NCBI GenBank assembly: GCA_902773675.1
Contig: CACYFN010000019.1
Location: forward strand, 1 to 47,682
Length of the DNA stretch: 47,682 nucleotides
Direction of reading: 5' to 3'
Origin: an uncultured Erysipelotrichaceae bacterium
Lineage (GTDB): Bacteria; Bacillota_I; Bacilli_A; RF39; UBA660
The notes under the pieces are model-generated. The model ran no database searches. It was not told the DNA's origin and worked only from the letters and a program-made list of their open reading frames with translations. Within the stretch, counting starts at the first letter, position 1; every line of letters begins with the position of its first letter. This document shows, piece after piece, positions 21,988 to 31,648 of this stretch. Both the position numbers and the translations under genes were made by a program.

Positions 21988-22021
21988 AGAATAAGTAAAA
22001 TAGTAGTATTGAGAGGTGCTT

Positions 22022-24112
22022 ATGAAAAAAAATAAAAAGATAGTAATTGATAAAAAAATAACAAATTATGTAGAATCATTTTTTGAAGAATTACATTATT
22101 CAAAAGAAATAGAAAGTGCTAAAGAAAACATAATTATAAAAATAAATGAAGAATATTTAAAAGAAAGCAAAAAAGATAAAAAAGAAGCTTTTAAAAACAT
22201 TGTAAACAAATATAATAGTTTAGAATCAATGTTAGAATTAGTTAAAATTGATACTAAAAAAATTGATAAATGGTATAACTTAGAAATAAGTAATACTTTT
22301 GAAGAATTCAAAAAAGAATTTAAAAAGGAAAGAAAACATATATATTTAACTACTATATTAGGAATAATATCTTTTGTATATTTATTAAAATCAATACTAT
22401 ATTATCATACTAATTTTGTAATTTTATTCAGTATATCTTTAGTACTATTATTAATAGATATAATTATTATAAGAAAACACAAAAAAGTAAAAAAAGATAT
22501 TTTCTCTGTAGATTGCTATAATTCATTAGAAAAAAGATTTGATAAATATTCAAAAAGAAGTATTAACTGGTTATTAATATTATTTCTAGAAGTATTTATG
22601 CTAATACTTAACTTTATATCATTAAAAGTAAACTCTAAACCAGATGAAATAATAGAATCATTCAATAGTTCATTATTCTTATTAGAAATCGCATCATTTT
22701 TCTTTATAAAAAACACCTTAATAATAAGATGGTTAAATAAAAAAATAGATTTTGAAAATGAAAAAAAATATCAGAAACTATTTAAATCAACAATAATTAT
22801 TTCATCAATTTATTGGATACTAAGCATTATCTTATTTTATGTCTTTGAAAAATACTTTGTACTTAATATAACTGCATTCATTGGTATATTATTTATGATA
22901 ATTATTATAATAAATAATTATACAAAAATAAAAAATATAACATACCATAAAAAGAAAATAAATAAATTAATAACTGCTGTAGTAGTATTAATATTATTAG
23001 TATATGGAGGATATAAATTTTTATCAAGAGATATATGGTTAACACAACCATATATAAATAGTATTCCATATATATATGAAGGTAATGATAATATAACATA
23101 TAATGATAAAAATGGAATATATACTATAGTATCTAATGAAGATGATTTTAAAATATTACAACTAACTGATATCCATCTAGGAGGAAGTGCACTTTCATAT
23201 AGTAAAGATTTAAAAGCATTAAAAGCAGTATATAAACTAATAGATTATACTAAACCTGATTTAGTAGTAGTAACAGGAGATATGTCATTTCCAATGAGAT
23301 TATTTTCATTCTCATTTAACAATACTGCTCCTGTAGAACAATTTGCAGCATTCATGCGAAATACAGGAGTACCTTGGGCATTTACCTATGGAAACCATGA
23401 TACTGAAAGTATGTCTATAGCAACTAACCAAGACTTAAATAAACTATATAAGAAATTATCATATAAAACAAGTAAAAATTTATTATACCCATATGTTCAA
23501 CCAAAAGTAGATGGAAAACAAATATGGGGGAGAAATAACCAATTAATAGAAATTAGAAATAGTGACGGTACATTAAATCAAGCAGTATTTTTAATAGATT
23601 CTAATGCTTATACAGGAGAAGGATTAAATAAATACGATTATATTCATGATGATCAAGTAGCATGGTATAAAAATGAAATAGAAAGATTAAACAAAGAAGA
23701 AGGAAAAACAATTTCATCATTAGGATTCTTTCATATCCCATTACAACAATATAAAATAGCTTATGAATTATATGAAGAAGGTAGTGATGAAGTTAAATAC
23801 TATTTTGGTTCAAATGATGAAAAAATGATTGATAAAATATGTGCAAGCGAATATCCTAGTAAATTATTTGATACTGCTGTAGAACTAAAAAGTACTAAAG
23901 GTTTCTTCTGTGGACATGATCACTATAATAATATGTCACTAGAATATCAAGGCATAAGACTTACATATGGTATGAGTATAGATTATTTAGTAATGCCAGG
24001 TATAGCAAGAGATACAAAACAAAGAGGAGCTACTCTAATAACTTCTCATAAAGATAGTAGTATAGATATAGAGCAAATACCACTTACATCAATAGAAAAA
24101 TATTATAAATAA
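22022..24112 (+). CDS. Membrane-anchored calcineurin-like metallophosphoesterase
   Basis: A 696-aa protein. Residues 1 to about 105 are charged and helical, predicted cytoplasmic. About seven hydrophobic helices follow in pairs (near 108-145, 182-240, 262-305 and 320-338). The C-terminal domain, about 375-690, carries all metallophosphoesterase motifs: D383-x-H385, D420 in VTGDMSFP, GNHD with H459, and GHDH at 631-634. The catalytic part is probably outside the cell. The substrate is unknown. The ATG at 22022 is used rather than the GTG in the ribosome site. No close partner gene; it is followed by a repeated terminator element. Confidence 0.85.
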   Translation: MKKNKKIVIDKKITNYVESFFEELHYSKEIESAKENIIIKINEEYLKESKKDKKEAFKNIVNKYNSLESMLELVKIDTKKIDKWYNLEISNTFEEFKKEFKKERKHIYLTTILGIISFVYLLKSILYYHTNFVILFSISLVLLLIDIIIIRKHKKVKKDIFSVDCYNSLEKRFDKYSKRSINWLLILFLEVFMLILNFISLKVNSKPDEIIESFNSSLFLLEIASFFFIKNTLIIRWLNKKIDFENEKKYQKLFKSTIIISSIYWILSIILFYVFEKYFVLNITAFIGILFMIIIIINNYTKIKNITYHKKKINKLITAVVVLILLVYGGYKFLSRDIWLTQPYINSIPYIYEGNDNITYNDKNGIYTIVSNEDDFKILQLTDIHLGGSALSYSKDLKALKAVYKLIDYTKPDLVVVTGDMSFPMRLFSFSFNNTAPVEQFAAFMRNTGVPWAFTYGNHDTESMSIATNQDLNKLYKKLSYKTSKNLLYPYVQPKVDGKQIWGRNNQLIEIRNSDGTLNQAVFLIDSNAYTGEGLNKYDYIHDDQVAWYKNEIERLNKEEGKTISSLGFFHIPLQQYKIAYELYEEGSDEVKYYFGSNDEKMIDKICASEYPSKLFDTAVELKSTKGFFCGHDHYNNMSLEYQGIRLTYGMSIDYLVMPGIARDTKQRGATLITSHKDSSIDIEQIPLTSIEKYYK

Positions 24113-24173
24113 ACAGTTCGCAATATAAATAAGATTGCGATGAGTGAAGTTAGAAAAATTTAACTTCTTTTTT
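24112..24173 (+). repeat. Repeat element copy 1, ending in a terminator
   Basis: AACAGTTCG, variable middle, AGATTGCGATGAGT, then stem GAAGTTAGA (24146-24154) / TTTAACTTC (24159-24167) and T-run. TCGCAAT (24118-24124) can also pair with ATTGCGA (24134-24140). A second copy lies at 28419-28480 in the same orientation. The hairpin serves as terminator for the metallophosphoesterase gene. Confidence 0.8.
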
Positions 24174-24209
24174 AAATAATATTACAAACAAAAAGATTTA
24201 GAAAATTTG

Positions 24210-27144: not shown

Positions 27145-27987
27145 TTTTCTTATATCCTTTCTTTCTGTTAATTTTCTTTCCTTTAATTCTTGCTGTGTTA
27201 TAAAATTCTATCCATTCTTCAACTAATTCTATGTAATTTTCTAAAGATGTGATATTATTGTTATACAAAGTTTCCTTTTTAAGGAGAGAGTGCCAACTCT
27301 CAATTGGTGAGTCATCTATCGGAGTACCTTAGATTCACAAATTGCTTTGTATTCATAAGATGTATACTGGAATCCTTGATCACTGTGAATGATAAGTCCA
27401 GATACATCTTTTCTTTTGTTTATTGCTTCATTTAAAGTATCCATAACTAATTTGTTATCGTTATGCTTTGATATTTTATAAGCAACAACTTTTCTATCAT
27501 ATAAATCTATTATTGTTGATAAATAAGCTCTAGAACCTTTAAATATAAGATATGTTACATCAGTATCCCATACTTTATTTGGTGCATCAGTGTTAAAATT
27601 TCTTTTTAATAAATTAGGTTTAACATTATCTTCAATTCTTTCATTTTTATTTTTCTTTTTTGATTTCCTTATATATTCGGGAACTAAATTATATTTTTTC
27701 ATTATTCTTAAAACCTTCTTTCCATTCATTACAACCCCTTCATATTTGATTTTAATGCCTTCCACAATACGACGATAACCATATGTACCTTTAGAGTCAT
27801 CAAATACTTCTTTAATTATTAAATAATCATAATAATCAGGATCATCCTTATTTCGATACTTATAATAAGTTTTAGGACTTATCTCTAATACGGCACACAT
27901 ATTATATAACTTATAATTATCTCTATATAGATTAATAAAAGTTACTTTCTCTCTCGTTGTGCCTTGAGGAAGGCCTGGTATTTTTTT
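27134..27987 (-). pseudogene. IS3-family transposase OrfB, interrupted by a deletion
   Basis: The OrfB frame opens in the A7 slip site, reads KKIPGLPQGTT..., and passes the HTH_21-like GTYGYRRI and rve core residues D (VWDTDVTYL) and D (IHSDQGFQYTS). It stops at 27316. The remainder, GTPIDDSPIESWHSLLKKE with the catalytic E, is in another frame down to 27134. About nine codons between AICESK and GTPID, normally ending SMSRK, are absent along with one base. The element cannot make a full DDE transposase as sequenced. The extreme C-terminus (ARIKGKKIN...) also departs from the usual family tail. Confidence 0.85.
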
Positions 27988-28232
27988 AGTATCTCATATC
28001 TTTCTTTGTAATCTTCTTTTGTTAAATCTTTTTCTTTAGGTCTACCACGTTTACCTAATTTTAGATATTTTTCTGGATATTTAATTTTCTTACCCCAAGT
28101 TTGGATAGTATTTTGAGATATTCCAAATTCTTTACCTAAAGATACACTTGATTCACCATTTAAATATCTATCTAATATAATTTCTTTTATATCAGAATTA
28201 TGTTTTTTGAATTTTTGTCCTTTTGAAGCCAT
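27942..28232 (-). CDS. IS3-family OrfA (helix-turn-helix protein)
   Basis: A 96-aa DNA-binding subunit: ASKGQKFKKHNSD start, HTH SVSLGKEFGISQNTIQTWGKKI, then KRGRPKEKDLTKEDYKERYEIL and the leucine-rich LKKYQAFLKAQ end. The ATG at 28232 follows GGAGGTG by 7 nt, so the upstream in-frame start at 28268 is rejected. It normally continues into OrfB by -1 frameshifting. Confidence 0.88.
   Translation of the reverse strand: MASKGQKFKKHNSDIKEIILDRYLNGESSVSLGKEFGISQNTIQTWGKKIKYPEKYLKLGKRGRPKEKDLTKEDYKERYEILKKYQAFLKAQRERK
27961..27987 (-). promoter_or_regulatory. Programmed -1 frameshift signal of the IS
   Basis: On the minus strand a run of seven A (27987-27981) is followed after 6 nt by a hairpin GCCTT-CCTC-AAGGC (27974-27961 region). 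Slipping back one base joins orfA to IPGLPQGTT of orfB. Confidence 0.75.
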
Positions 28233-28325
28233 AGAAAAACACCTCCTTTCGGAAGTGTATTCTATCACAAAACTAGTTTTTTATTAATGTCTACCCAGAG
28301 GGGTGCATTTCATCAAGTTAGTGTT

Positions 28326-28418: not shown

Positions 28419-28480
28419 AACAGTTCGAAAACTTTTGAGATTGCGATGAGTGAAGTTAGAAAAATCTAACTTCTTTTTTT
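28419..28480 (+). repeat. Repeat element copy 2, ending in a terminator
   Basis: AACAGTTCG, variable middle, AGATTGCGATGAGT, perfect stem GAAGTTAGA (28452-28460) / TCTAACTTC (28465-28473), seven T. It matches copy 1 at 24112 except in the middle segment. There is no gene directly upstream to terminate. Confidence 0.8.
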
Positions 28481-28526
28481 AATAAGATTGCGATAAATTT
28501 AATTCTTATTTGGGAGGGGATTTGTT

Positions 28527-29492
28527 ATGAATGAGAATACAATAAAAATTATTGAATCAGAAATGAGTAAATACTTAAATAACTACCAGATGATTAAACT
28601 TAATAATATACTTTATAAGCAAATTGATAATTCTGATTTAGATAGAATATCTAATGATGATTTATATAATAAGTTTATAAGTACAAAAAAATTAGAAGGT
28701 GTATCTGAATTAACTATAAAGAATTATAGAATACATTTAAATAAGTTCTTTAATTATGTTAATAAAGATTTAAGAACAATTAGTACTGATGATATAAGAG
28801 ATTATTTGTCATATTATCAAAGTAATACTAATTGTTGTAATTTAACTTTGGATGGAGTACGAAGATTCTTATCTAGTTTCTTTTCATTCTTAGAATTAGA
28901 AGATTATATAATTAAGAATCCCGTTAGAAGGATTCATAAAATTAGGATTGAAAATATAATAAAAGAAACATATTCAGATGAACTGTTGGAACAATTAAGA
29001 AACAATTGTAATAATATTAGAAATCTAGCAATTATAGATTTACTTGCTTCATCAGGTATGAGAATAGGAGAATTAGTTAAACTAAACATAGATGATATTA
29101 ATTTTGAAACTAATTCTTGCTTAGTATATGGTAAAGGAAGAAAAATGAGAGAAGTATATTTTGATGCAAAAGCTAAATTACATTTAAAAGAATATCTTAG
29201 TTCAAGAAAAGATAATAATGAAGCTTTATTTGTTACTAAAGATAGACCTTATAATAGATTAGGTATTAGAGGAATAGAATTAATGTTACAAAAATTAGGT
29301 GATTCTATTGGAGAAGTTAAAGTGCATCCACATAAATTTAGAAGAACATTAGCAACTAAAGCAATAGATAAAGGAATGCCAATAGAACAAGTTCAAAGAT
29401 TATTAGGTCATACTAAAATAGATACAACTCTTCATTATGAAATGGTTAATCAAAATAATGTTAGAATTTCTCATAGAAAATATATTTGTTAA
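28527..29492 (+). CDS. Tyrosine recombinase (integrase)
   Basis: A 321-aa protein. The N-terminal SAM-like core-binding domain is at residues about 45-125 and the catalytic domain about 145-318. Active-site residues visible are R179 (SGMRIGEL), H269-K-F-R272 (HxxR box), H295 (LLGHT) and nucleophile Y304 (TLHYEMV). It is not clearly XerC or XerD, since it has a long N-terminus and HKFRRT instead of HxLRHT. Good GGGAGGGG ribosome site. It precedes fic by 107 nt and lies next to repeat copy 2, so it may act on a local element. Confidence 0.88.
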   Translation: MNENTIKIIESEMSKYLNNYQMIKLNNILYKQIDNSDLDRISNDDLYNKFISTKKLEGVSELTIKNYRIHLNKFFNYVNKDLRTISTDDIRDYLSYYQSNTNCCNLTLDGVRRFLSSFFSFLELEDYIIKNPVRRIHKIRIENIIKETYSDELLEQLRNNCNNIRNLAIIDLLASSGMRIGELVKLNIDDINFETNSCLVYGKGRKMREVYFDAKAKLHLKEYLSSRKDNNEALFVTKDRPYNRLGIRGIELMLQKLGDSIGEVKVHPHKFRRTLATKAIDKGMPIEQVQRLLGHTKIDTTLHYEMVNQNNVRISHRKYIC

Positions 29493-29544
29493 GTGCAAAT
29501 TCAAAGTGCAAAAAGAGAATTTCAAAGTGCAAAATTTGCACTTT
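29491..29544 (+). promoter_or_regulatory. GTGCAAA repeat array, likely fic operator
   Basis: Three direct copies of AAGTGCAAA (29491-29499, 29503-29513, 29524-29534) and one inverted copy. The last forms a perfect palindrome AAAGTGCAAA-A-TTTGCACTTT (29524-29544). The array starts in the integrase stop codon and lies just upstream of the fic promoter. Confidence 0.7.
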
Positions 29545-29568
29545 ATCCTTTATTAATATAGTAAAATA

Positions 29569-29577
29569 TGCTATAAT
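29569..29577 (+). promoter_or_regulatory. Extended -10 promoter of fic
   Basis: TGCTATAAT: TG at 29569-29570, TATAAT at 29572-29577. Transcription would start before the ATG at 29600. Confidence 0.65.
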
Positions 29578-29599
29578 ATATATAGTTGGAGGAGATATC

Positions 29600-30655
29600 A
29601 TGAGTAATGAAAAATGGAATTTAGAATTATCGGAATACATTAAACAAGGAGAACCAGAAAAAAAAGAAAAAGCTAAAACTTGGGAAACTGCTATTGGTCT
29701 TCAGGATGTAGATGGTTTAAAGCCTTCGGAATATTTATTAGATACAGCTAAAGAACATATTGAAGGTAATATTAATATTGATGAAGCTAAGAAAAGAATT
29801 GATAATTATTATGAACAATCATCTGAAAGAAAAAGTGAAGAAAATACTGAAGAAGCGGATAAGGTTTCTGTACGTATTACAGAAATACTAAGTGAAAAAG
29901 CTTTTAATTTTTCACCAACAGAAATGTTAAATATTCATAAAAGACTATTTACAGGAATATATAAAGAAGCAGGTAAATACAGAGATTATAATTTTACTAA
30001 AAAAGAATGGATATTAAATGACGATACTGTTACATATTCATCATATGAAACTCTAAAAGAAACCATAGAATATGATTTTGATCAAGAAAGAAACTTTTCA
30101 TATAAAGATTTAAGTTTAGATGAATCAATTAGTCATTTAAGTAGATTTATATCAAATATATGGCAAGTACATCCTTTCTGTGAAGGTAATACAAGAACAA
30201 CTGCTGTTTTCTTAATTAAATATTTAAGAACATTTGGCTTTGATGTTAAGGATGAAGTGTTTGCAGATAATTCATGGTATTTCAGAAATGCATTAGTTAG
30301 AGCTAATTATAAAAATTATGAAAAAAATGTATTTGAAGATATCTCATTTCTTGAAAAGTTTTTCTATAATTTATTAACTAATACTAAATATGAATTAAAG
30401 AATAGATATATGCATGTTGATTATAAAGATAACATTGAAGCAATAAGTTCTAATATTAATAGTTTATCTTTAGAAGAGCAAGCAATATTGAATATTATTA
30501 AGAATAATCCATCAGTAAAGCAAGAAGAAATTGCTACTTTAATTAATAAGTCATTAAGAACAATAAAAAACTATATGGCTGAAATGCAAGAAAAAGGATT
30601 AATAGAACGAAAAAATGGCAAAAGAGATGGAGAATGGATTATTAAAAATAATTAA
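29600..30655 (+). CDS. Fic-domain AMPylase-like protein with VbhA-like N-terminus and C-terminal wHTH
   Basis: A 351-aa protein. Residues about 25-75 (TAIGLQDVDGLKPSEYL, HIEGNINIDEAKKRI) resemble the VbhA-type antitoxin/inhibitory region. The Fic domain is about 95-260, with active site HPFCEGNTRTT starting at H191, which keeps the consensus HPFxEGNxR. Residues about 285-350 form a winged helix (SVKQEEIATLINKSLRTIKNYMAEM). Fic enzymes transfer AMP to target proteins. The ATG at 29600 after GGAGGAG is preferred; the longer frame from 29486 would run through the operator repeats. The helix could bind the upstream GTGCAAA repeats. Confidence 0.88.
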   Translation: MSNEKWNLELSEYIKQGEPEKKEKAKTWETAIGLQDVDGLKPSEYLLDTAKEHIEGNINIDEAKKRIDNYYEQSSERKSEENTEEADKVSVRITEILSEKAFNFSPTEMLNIHKRLFTGIYKEAGKYRDYNFTKKEWILNDDTVTYSSYETLKETIEYDFDQERNFSYKDLSLDESISHLSRFISNIWQVHPFCEGNTRTTAVFLIKYLRTFGFDVKDEVFADNSWYFRNALVRANYKNYEKNVFEDISFLEKFFYNLLTNTKYELKNRYMHVDYKDNIEAISSNINSLSLEEQAILNIIKNNPSVKQEEIATLINKSLRTIKNYMAEMQEKGLIERKNGKRDGEWIIKNN

Positions 30656-30658
30656 TTT

Positions 30659-30688
30659 AGATTGAAATTTTTTTCAATCTTTTTTTTA
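30659..30688 (+). terminator. Terminator of fic
   Basis: AGATTGAAA (30659-30667), TTTT loop, TTTCAATCT (30672-30680), then T-run. Confidence 0.85.
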
Positions 30689-30735
30689 ATAAAATTGCAA
30701 TAAATATAAGAGAATGAAAAAATTATCTTTTTTTG

Positions 30736-30744
30736 TGATATAAT
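30736..30744 (+). promoter_or_regulatory. Extended -10 promoter of the CDF transporter gene
   Basis: TGATATAAT with TG at 30736-30737 and TATAAT at 30739-30744. It overlaps the in-frame ATG at 30743, which therefore cannot be the start. Confidence 0.6.
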
Positions 30745-30763
30745 GATAGATATGGTGAAGCAA

Positions 30764-31648
30764 ATGAAAGCAGAGAAAAATATATTAATTGCATTTATTT
30801 TAAATATATCATTTTCCATATTTGAATTTATAGGTGGATTATTTACTAATTCAATATCAATTTTATCTGATTCAGTTCATGATTTAGGTGATGCTATTTC
30901 AATCGGTATATCATACTTTATGGAAAAGAAAAGCAAAAAATATGCTGATAATAAATATACATATGGATATATTAGATATTCTGTATTAGGAGGAATAATT
31001 ACAACTACAATATTATTAGTAGGGTCTATTTTAGTAATAATAGGAGCTATAAAAAGAATTATAAATCCAGCCCCAGTTAATTATAGTGGTATGATAATAC
31101 TAGCTATAATAGGAGTTATATTAAACTTTATAGCAGCTTATGTTACAAGAGAAGGAAATTCAATTAATCAAAAAGCAGTTAACTTACATATGCTTGAAGA
31201 TGTATTAGGGTGGATAGTTGTATTAATTGGTGCTATTGTAATGAATTTCACTGATATTAGAATTATAGATCCTATTATGAGTATTGGAGTTGCAATATTT
31301 ATATTAATTAATTCTCTAAAAAATTTAAAAAAAGTATTAGACTTATTCTTAGAAAAAACTCCAGATGATATAGATATAGAAGAATTGAAAGAACATTTAT
31401 TAAAAATAAATGGAGTTGATGATATTCATCATATTCATGTATGGAGTATAGATGGATATAATAATTATGCTACTATGCATATAGTATCTAAATCTAAAGA
31501 TATAAATAAAATCAAAAAAGAAATTAGAGAAGAATTAGAAGAACATAATATATGTCATACAATATTAGAAACAGAAGATGAAGTATGTGATGATAAAGAA
31601 TGCAATGTCCATTTAAATAAAATAGAACAACATCACCATCATCATTAA
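30764..31648 (+). CDS. Cation diffusion facilitator family transporter (Zn2+/Co2+/Cd2+ type)
   Basis: A 294-aa proton/metal antiporter with six helices. It has FSIFEFIGGLFTNSISILSDSVHDLGD in TM1-TM2 (metal-site residues SDSVHDLGD), the TM5 pair HMLEDVLGW, and a C-terminal cytoplasmic ferredoxin-like domain (DDIHHIHVWSIDG). The tail contains CDDKECNVHLNK and ends in five histidines, a natural metal-binding tail. The ATG at 30764 is chosen because GGTG is 6 nt upstream and the promoter excludes earlier starts. Probably exports zinc or related ions. Confidence 0.9.
   Translation: MKAEKNILIAFILNISFSIFEFIGGLFTNSISILSDSVHDLGDAISIGISYFMEKKSKKYADNKYTYGYIRYSVLGGIITTTILLVGSILVIIGAIKRIINPAPVNYSGMIILAIIGVILNFIAAYVTREGNSINQKAVNLHMLEDVLGWIVVLIGAIVMNFTDIRIIDPIMSIGVAIFILINSLKNLKKVLDLFLEKTPDDIDIEELKEHLLKINGVDDIHHIHVWSIDGYNNYATMHIVSKSKDINKIKKEIREELEEHNICHTILETEDEVCDDKECNVHLNKIEQHHHHH

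What the first reader, a model, noticed from the sequence alone, without database searches (positions are those of the whole stretch)
28419..30655. Tyrosine recombinase plus autoregulated Fic protein with GTGCAAA operator array
The integrase stop codon merges into three direct AAGTGCAAA copies and a perfect 21-bp palindrome just before the fic promoter. Fic has a VbhA-like N-terminal region, an intact HPFxEGNxR site and a C-terminal winged helix. Inference: Fic controls its own transcription through the array and forms, with the recombinase, a small mobile or phase-variable defence/toxin unit.
Basis: partly seen in the sequence, partly recalled or inferred. Interest (0 to 1): 0.6.

Follow-up and report, generated by a model that had tools for sequence, protein, structure and literature searches.

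The report
Self-regulating Fic gene beside a recombinase
The repeated GTGCAAA motif in front of this probable toxin-enzyme gene is almost certainly the gene's own control switch, because it is found next to the same gene type in over a hundred bacterial species and changes its letters when the gene's DNA-reading helix changes; the recombinase next door is usually absent and seems only to share a ride.

Summary
In detail: three AAGTGCAAA half-sites (29490-29544), the third being the left arm of a perfect 21-bp palindrome, lie between the recombinase stop and a weak fic promoter. Of 110 Fic homologues with this type of C-terminal winged helix (wHTH), 107 carry the array upstream, against 0 of 24 Fics with other C-termini. 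In five genera the perfect palindrome occurs once per genome, at fic. Where the recognition helix changes RTxK to RTxD, the half-site changes TTGCACTTT to TTGCGTTTT (5 of 5, one clade); one RTAE protein has TTGCACATT. Best explanation: Fic autoregulates through the array, most likely as a repressor, as shown for CccR. About half of the homologues carry a second array inside fic, at the Fic-wHTH junction. The recombinase is not part of the conserved unit: it was beside array-fic in 1 of 80 loci, though it travels with it in a few relatives. There the pair lies among co-oriented 20-bp sites that follow genes like cassette sites. Phase variation found no support. DNA binding, toxicity and defence are untested.

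The parts
28527..29492 (+). XerA-like tyrosine recombinase, 321 aa, intact reading frame; not part of the conserved fic unit
   Evidence: NF040815 230.6 bits (cut-off 220), Phage_integrase PF00589 E 1e-33; beside array-fic in only 1 of 80 loci
29490..29499 (+). operator half-site 1 (TAAGTGCAAA), overlapping the recombinase stop codon
29503..29512 (+). operator half-site 2 (AAAGTGCAAA)
29524..29544 (.). main operator, perfect 21-bp palindrome AAAGTGCAA-AAT-TTGCACTTT
   Evidence: same design in 74 of 78 loci; only perfect copy in this genome
29549..29577 (+). fic promoter, TTTATT-17-TATAAT, starting 4 bp after the palindrome
   Evidence: sequence; -10 box 27-30 nt after the palindrome core in most relatives
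29600..30655 (+). fic gene, 351 aa, PADLOC family PDC-S72
   Evidence: PDC-S72 E 6e-132; Fic E 2e-11
29684..29803 (+). VbhA-like N-terminal segment (residues 29-68); inhibitory motif degenerate (L34-QDV-D38-G39)
   Evidence: D38 invariant in 50 homologues
30170..30196 (+). Fic active-site motif HPFCEGNTR (191-199); second Arg replaced by Ala202
30464..30634 (+). winged helix (residues about 289-345); recognition helix 319-331, K323 being the covarying residue
   Evidence: HTH_24; model helix 319-331; covariation
28425..28446 (+). candidate recombination core site upstream of the recombinase (TCGAAAACTTTTGAGATTGCGA)
   Evidence: 2 arm mismatches, not significant alone (expected 3.4 by chance); next to a 48-bp repeat shared with 24132-24179
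24118..24140 (+). candidate recombination core site TCGCAATATAAATAAGATTGCGA right after the stop of the gene 22016-24112
   Evidence: 1 mismatch, expected 0.1
30681..30709 (+). imperfect direct repeat of 28474-28502 bounding the recombinase-fic pair
   Evidence: 90% over 29 bp; ARATTGCRATAAA occurs only at these two places in the genome

Best explanation
The array is the operator of the fic gene. The C-terminal winged helix of the Fic protein binds AAAGTGCAA half-sites, probably as a dimer on the palindrome with further subunits on the direct half-sites one or two helical turns upstream. It controls its own promoter, most likely by repression, keeping a potentially toxic nucleotidyl-transferring enzyme low. 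Shown by comparison: array and wHTH type go together and change together. Inferred: physical binding, direction of control, toxicity and catalysis. The N-terminus is VbhA-like, but the usual inhibitory Glu-Arg pair is replaced (Asp38 and Ala202, positions inferred from alignment), so control by expression level may matter more than in classical class II Fics. The recombinase is a separate gene that in some relatives travels with array-fic, apparently as one cassette of a gene-cassette array.
For: (1) 107 of 110 homologues with this wHTH carry at least two half-sites upstream, 0 of 24 with other C-termini. Of the exceptions, L067 has the array about 550 bp upstream, ahead of a preceding gene, L070 has a changed right arm, and L105 has only 217 bp upstream. 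(2) Perfect palindrome unique per genome in five genera; in 243 family genomes, 15 of 16 with this fic have it, and the 16th has one mismatch. (3) The conserved block is array plus fic; neighbours differ. (4) RTxK with TTGCACTTT 101, RTxR 1, RTxD with TTGCGTTTT 5 of 5 (one clade nested among K members, SH-aLRT 97), RTAE with TTGCACATT 1. In L221/L225 a different C-terminus goes with no array. (5) Repressor geometry: in family f7 the last half-site is itself the likely -35; in L097, L103, L123 and L128 sites lie within the promoter. (6) Precedent: CccR represses its own promoter through its C-terminal HTH (PMC9755527).
Against: No binding or expression data. In the window and its nearest kin the sites lie just upstream of -35, a place that also suits activators. 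Species are related, so the Fisher P (1e-23) overstates independence; operator change occurred in about two events plus C-terminus replacements. Half-site and wHTH patterns were set after seeing the data. About ten genomes carry arrays without intact fic, which could be relics or other targets.
Confidence: 0.86

Rival explanations
1. Fic binds the array but activates its own promoter (positive feedback) instead of repressing it.
For: In most f1 members the palindrome ends 4-6 bp upstream of -35, with half-sites to about -95, as for class I/II activators; the window -35 is weak.
Against: In f7 the last half-site overlaps -35, and in L097/L103/L123/L128 sites lie inside the promoter; CccR, the one tested protein of this kind, represses.
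Confidence: 0.15
2. The array is a recombination site or arm-site array of the neighbouring tyrosine recombinase.
For: Arms of 7-11 bp around a 7-bp centre resemble a tyrosine-recombinase core; the recombinases closest to this one lie beside an array in several genomes.
Against: The array stays with fic in nearly all of 80 loci without the recombinase; it follows the wHTH sequence, not the recombinase; different candidate core sites flank the pair.
Confidence: 0.05
3. A host regulator other than Fic binds the array.
For: Some arrays stand without intact fic (L163, L167, L169, L171, L173, L174, L176).
Against: One perfect operator per genome, at fic; helix-operator covariation within Fic itself; absent from Fics without this wHTH. 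L160 and L169 look like relics with a fic 5' remnant.
Confidence: 0.05
4. The repeats act as RNA: a terminator of the upstream gene or a type III-like RNA antitoxin.
For: The palindrome scores as a terminator-like stem.
Against: It lies upstream of the conserved fic promoter, so fic mRNA lacks it; no long T-run follows; most relatives add direct half-sites at 13 or 20-22 bp; no Rfam match.
Confidence: 0.03
5. Recombinase and fic form a dedicated phase-variable defence unit.
For: Intact recombinase immediately upstream; a paralogue in the same genome lies between two hsdS genes, as phase-variable type I R-M recombinases do; PDC-S72 is a defence candidate.
Against: No strong inverted repeats around the pair; recombinase absent from nearly all fic loci and decayed in G534 and G506 while fic persists in G534.
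Confidence: 0.06

Closest known systems
CccR (YPK_0951) of Yersinia pseudotuberculosis, class II Fic with C-terminal HTH (PMC9755527)
   Same: N-terminal inhibitory region, Fic core, C-terminal HTH; repeat operator in its own promoter; CccR demonstrably represses itself
   Different: Operator is AGATAATCAT-N26-ATGATAATCT, not a 21-bp palindrome with direct half-sites; CccR has an intact S59ARIEG inhibitory motif and is a secreted effector; no secretion link seen here
PADLOC PDC-S72 (phage defence candidate family)
   Same: All 50 aligned homologues match (window E 6e-132)
   Different: The model says nothing about operator or mechanism; defence function not tested here
VbhT/VbhA of Bartonella (class I Fic toxin-antitoxin; 3shg, 3zc7)
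   Same: Nearest solved relatives by sequence (E 2e-9 to 3e-9); VbhA-like segment at the N-terminus
   Different: Antitoxin-like segment fused to the Fic; inhibitory Glu and its Arg partner replaced (D38, A202); C-terminal wHTH instead of a secretion domain
SoFic SO_4266 (3eqx) and CbFic2 (8cil), class II Fics with HTH
   Same: Overall architecture among the best structure matches
   Different: CbFic2 binds random DNA tightly, with no specific operator known, and SoFic DNA binding is undemonstrated (both PMC10628234); canonical inhibitory motif (TSAIEG in CbFic2)
Acinetobacter pdif modules and integron cassette arrays (for the recombinase neighbourhood)
   Same: Genes bounded by short recombinase-type sites, and shared between genomes in different order
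   Different: Here sites are co-oriented and follow the stop codon; pdif modules are mostly flanked by inverted sites (PMC7399989); no IntI-type integrase identified; integrons are extremely rare in Firmicutes and were not found in Tenericutes (PMC9024848)

Membership tests
Autoregulating Fic-HTH proteins (CccR-like) | Fic core plus C-terminal HTH | tested here: met
   PF02661 and PF13412 in 50 of 50 homologues
Autoregulating Fic-HTH proteins (CccR-like) | Conserved operator in its own promoter that follows the HTH | tested here: met
   107/110 against 0/24; covariation
Autoregulating Fic-HTH proteins (CccR-like) | Direct binding and repression | not testable with these tools
   needs EMSA and reporter assays
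Class I/II Fic with inhibitory helix (VbhA-type) | (S/T)xxxE(G/N) motif and its Arg partner in HxFx(D/E)GNxxR | tested here: not met
   L34-QDV-D38-G39 and A202 instead; D38 and A202 invariant in 50 sequences; register to VbhA rests on a weak Pfam alignment
Active Fic enzymes | HxFx(D/E)GN and first Arg | tested here: met
   HPFCEGNTR; H191, P192, F193, E195, G196, N197, R199 invariant
PDC-S72 | Match to PDLC05078 over most of its length | tested here: met
   6e-132, profile 6-333 of 377
Anti-phage defence system | Protection against phage | not testable with these tools
   only the candidate label; named window neighbours are mostly transport and housekeeping genes
Mobile or phase-variable recombinase unit | Recombinase conserved with fic | tested here: not met
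   1 of 80 loci
Integron or cassette array (neighbourhood in relatives) | Co-oriented recombination sites each following a gene | tested here: met
   133 sites against 5 in the reversed control; 35 of 44 just after a co-oriented stop codon, 7% at random
Integron | IntI-type integrase next to attI | tested here: inconclusive
   the window recombinase is XerA-like (TIGR02249 75.6 against cut-off 265); no integrase was noticed beside the array starts in the stretches read, but it was not searched for

The most novel reading that the evidence does not exclude
The recombinase-fic pair is one cassette of an undescribed integron-like gene-cassette system in uncultured gut Bacilli. It uses 20-bp inverted-arm sites (CGNAAKATTAAGATATTNCG), each directly after a gene, and cassettes are exchanged between genera; the window carries a diverged remnant of such an array.
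Probability: 0.5. Interest if true: 0.78.

Novelty: new variant of a known kind. Interest (0 to 1): 0.56.

Why it matters
One tested Fic (CccR) is known to repress itself through its HTH; for two other structurally known Fic-HTH proteins no specific operator is known. Here a whole family shows its operator in sequence, with natural helix-operator swaps that give ready-made tests of specificity, and with loss of the usual inhibitory pair. That makes it testable whether some Fic toxins are held in check by expression rather than by the inhibitory helix. The second operator array inside the gene, at the domain junction, is a further unexplained regulatory feature. The cassette-like sites around the pair point to a gene-exchange system in a group where integrons are reported as extremely rare.

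Tried and rejected
Viral-contig search with the Fic protein: no relatives. Array as recombinase site: rejected because it follows fic, not the recombinase. RNA family or antitoxin: no Rfam match. Inverted repeats for phase variation: none strong. ARATTGCRATAAA direct repeat: about 1.5 copies expected by chance from base composition, so only its position is notable. First wHTH classification pattern was too narrow and was replaced (one search was an empty script). Codon test for the intragenic array is partly circular, since loci were picked by resemblance to the site; the half-site exactly 22 bp upstream in 24 of 39 is the independent evidence. Some palindromes without fic are chance or terminators (L156 and L177 inside genes, L178 terminator-like).

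Full report
1. Observation. The region was read directly. The recombinase frame 28527-29492 and the fic frame 29600-30655 are intact. The stop codon of the recombinase is the first part of TAAGTGCAAA. Further copies start at 29503 and 29524, and the last forms the left arm of AAAGTGCAAAATTTGCACTTT. No other exact AAAGTGCAAA lies in the window. A weak -35 (TTTATT) and a good -10 (TATAAT) follow, 4 bp beyond the palindrome.

2. Proteins. The Fic protein has a Fic core (E 2e-11) and a winged helix (E 2.4e-8), and is PADLOC candidate PDC-S72 (E 6e-132); all 50 aligned homologues match that model. The VbhA domain is weak in this copy (E 0.0099) but is hit in 32 of 50 homologues. By sequence the nearest solved proteins are VbhT and Bartonella effector Fic domains. 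The AlphaFold model is of moderate quality (mean pLDDT 70, pTM 0.62); its best matches are full-length Fic-HTH proteins (7cb8, CbFic2, SoFic) and VbhT. In the alignment to VbhT the second Arg of the Fic motif is Ala202. If the VbhA-like segment is aligned by its Gly-Leu, the inhibitory Glu is Asp38 and the Ser/Thr is Leu34. Asp38 and Ala202 are invariant in 50 homologues. The usual inhibitory salt bridge is therefore probably not formed; the register is an inference. The recombinase is XerA-like (NF040815, 230.6 bits).

3. Does the array follow fic? Among 97 related genomes the four nearest orthologues (70-73% identity, each in another genus) all carry half-sites plus a 21-bp palindrome at the same place, with different upstream genes. 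Shorter Fics without a wHTH have none (loci on the minus strand had to be reverse-complemented). The perfect palindrome occurs once per genome in all five genera. In a wider scan, 74 of 78 loci with enough upstream sequence have AAGTGC-N7-GCACTT. The homologous block is array plus fic and stops at about the fic stop codon in nearly all loci. In 243 genomes of the family, 29 have the exact palindrome and 16 have this fic, with an overlap of 15; the sixteenth has one mismatch (G505). Of the fourteen others, most are arrays with half-sites near lost, truncated or contig-cut fic genes, and three are chance or terminators.

4. Does the array follow the wHTH? Distant relatives in other families (far lower match scores) use the same half-site in other arrangements. 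With the wHTH classed by its recognition-helix motif, 107 of 110 have an array, against 0 of 24 Fics with other or no C-terminal domain. The classes were defined after inspection and species are related, so the Fisher P of 1e-23 overstates the strength. The specificity change is more telling: five proteins with RTID have TTGCGTTTT/AAAGCGCAA half-sites, nested (SH-aLRT 97) inside a clade with RTIK and TTGCACTTT; one RTAE protein has TTGCACATT. These are two separate changes. A tree built without the wHTH also places L221/L225, with another C-terminus and no array, beside L141, which has the array.

5. Direction of control. In f1 the palindrome ends 4-6 bp before -35 and the -10 starts 27-30 nt after the palindrome core in most, which fits either sign. 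In f7 the last half-site is itself the likely -35 (TTGCAC-N16/17-TATAAT), and in L097, L103, L123 and L128 sites fall within the promoter. This favours repression. CccR, the published Fic-HTH autoregulator, binds inverted repeats near -35/-10; deleting it raises its promoter activity 3.3-fold (PMC9755527). For CbFic2 only binding to random DNA is reported, and SoFic DNA binding is undemonstrated (PMC10628234).

6. Intragenic array. In 39 of 81 fic genes a site with at most 4 of 16 mismatches lies at nucleotides about 834-877, in the variable linker between Fic core and wHTH; no site of that quality appears elsewhere in these genes apart from a few weaker overlapping neighbours. In 24 of 39 an exact AAGTGCA sits exactly 22 bp upstream of it, as in the promoter array; the same 7-mer occurs twice in 63 kb of the remaining coding sequence. 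On the tree the feature changes 12 times. The window copy lacks it. Looping, road-block or a relic of domain fusion are possible; none was tested.

7. The recombinase. It lies beside array-fic in one of 80 loci (L056). In the family survey its nearest kin are in G038, G534 and G506, each beside an array; those of G534 (frameshifts and stops) and G506 (internal deletion) are damaged. A paralogue in this genome lies between two hsdS genes, as do the recombinases of phase-variable type I R-M systems (background knowledge). Flanks of the pair differ among window, L056, G534 and G506. In these relatives a repeated element precedes the recombinase, follows fic and follows neighbouring genes. Its 20-bp core CGNAAKATTAAGATATTNCG has inverted arms; searched as CGNAAKATTAAGATATTNC with one mismatch allowed it occurs about 130 times in 52 of 243 genomes, against 5 or so for the reversed pattern. 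Of 44 sites in 15 fetched stretches, 35 lie just after a co-oriented stop codon (7% at random). Three site-borne genes are 93-99.6% identical between genera in different array positions. These look like gene cassettes. Integrons are reported as extremely rare in Firmicutes and absent from Tenericutes (PMC9024848); pdif modules are the other comparison (PMC7399989). Literature searches found no description of such arrays in this group, but most subscription papers are not held. In the window the best arm matches are at 24118 and 28425, of which only the first is beyond chance alone. So the window pair may be a cassette in a diverged array; which recombinase serves the sites is unknown.

8. Verdict. 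The array is very probably the operator through which this Fic family regulates itself. The step from comparison to binding and repression remains to be done at the bench. The recombinase is a fellow traveller, not a partner. Defence and phase variation are unsupported beyond a candidate label.

Noticed in passing
L239 (G523), L240 (G497), L241 (G450), L242 (G578), L228 (G534), L229 (G506), L056: Series of genes each followed by a co-oriented 20-bp core site CGNAAKATTAAGATATTNCG, an integron-like cassette arrangement in uncultured Bacilli; some genes 93-99.6% identical between genera.
   Followed up: partly
L240:3977, L241:2137, L242:3112, L239:4264: At the start of several of these arrays a related site in the opposite orientation (ATCGTAATATTACTATTTTCCGATT) occurs, possibly a primary attachment site.
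   Followed up: no
nt about 818-877 of the fic gene in about 39 of 81 homologues (e.g. L075, L090, L102, L104): A second copy of the operator array inside the coding sequence at the junction of Fic core and winged helix, with the half-site in another reading frame than the palindrome.
   Followed up: partly
L173, L174, L176, L163, L167, L171: Complete arrays without an intact fic nearby; relics of lost fic genes or operators of other genes.
   Followed up: no
window 27316-28268: IS3-family transposase frames on the minus strand (orfB frame truncated) between the MgtA-type ATPase gene and the recombinase.
   Followed up: no
G000:C20:1596-11620 (L048): Type I restriction-modification locus with a 59%-identical recombinase between two hsdS genes, a likely phase-variable specificity switch in the same genome.
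   Followed up: no
L005/L053 (G040 fic): The reading frame is shifted in a run of A near the 3' end, removing the wing of the wHTH; assembly error or real slippage.
   Followed up: no
G040 (L053) and window 30743-31648: The same CDF cation-efflux gene lies downstream of fic in both genomes, in G040 with a small gene between; found in only this one of the 80 loci compared.
   Followed up: no
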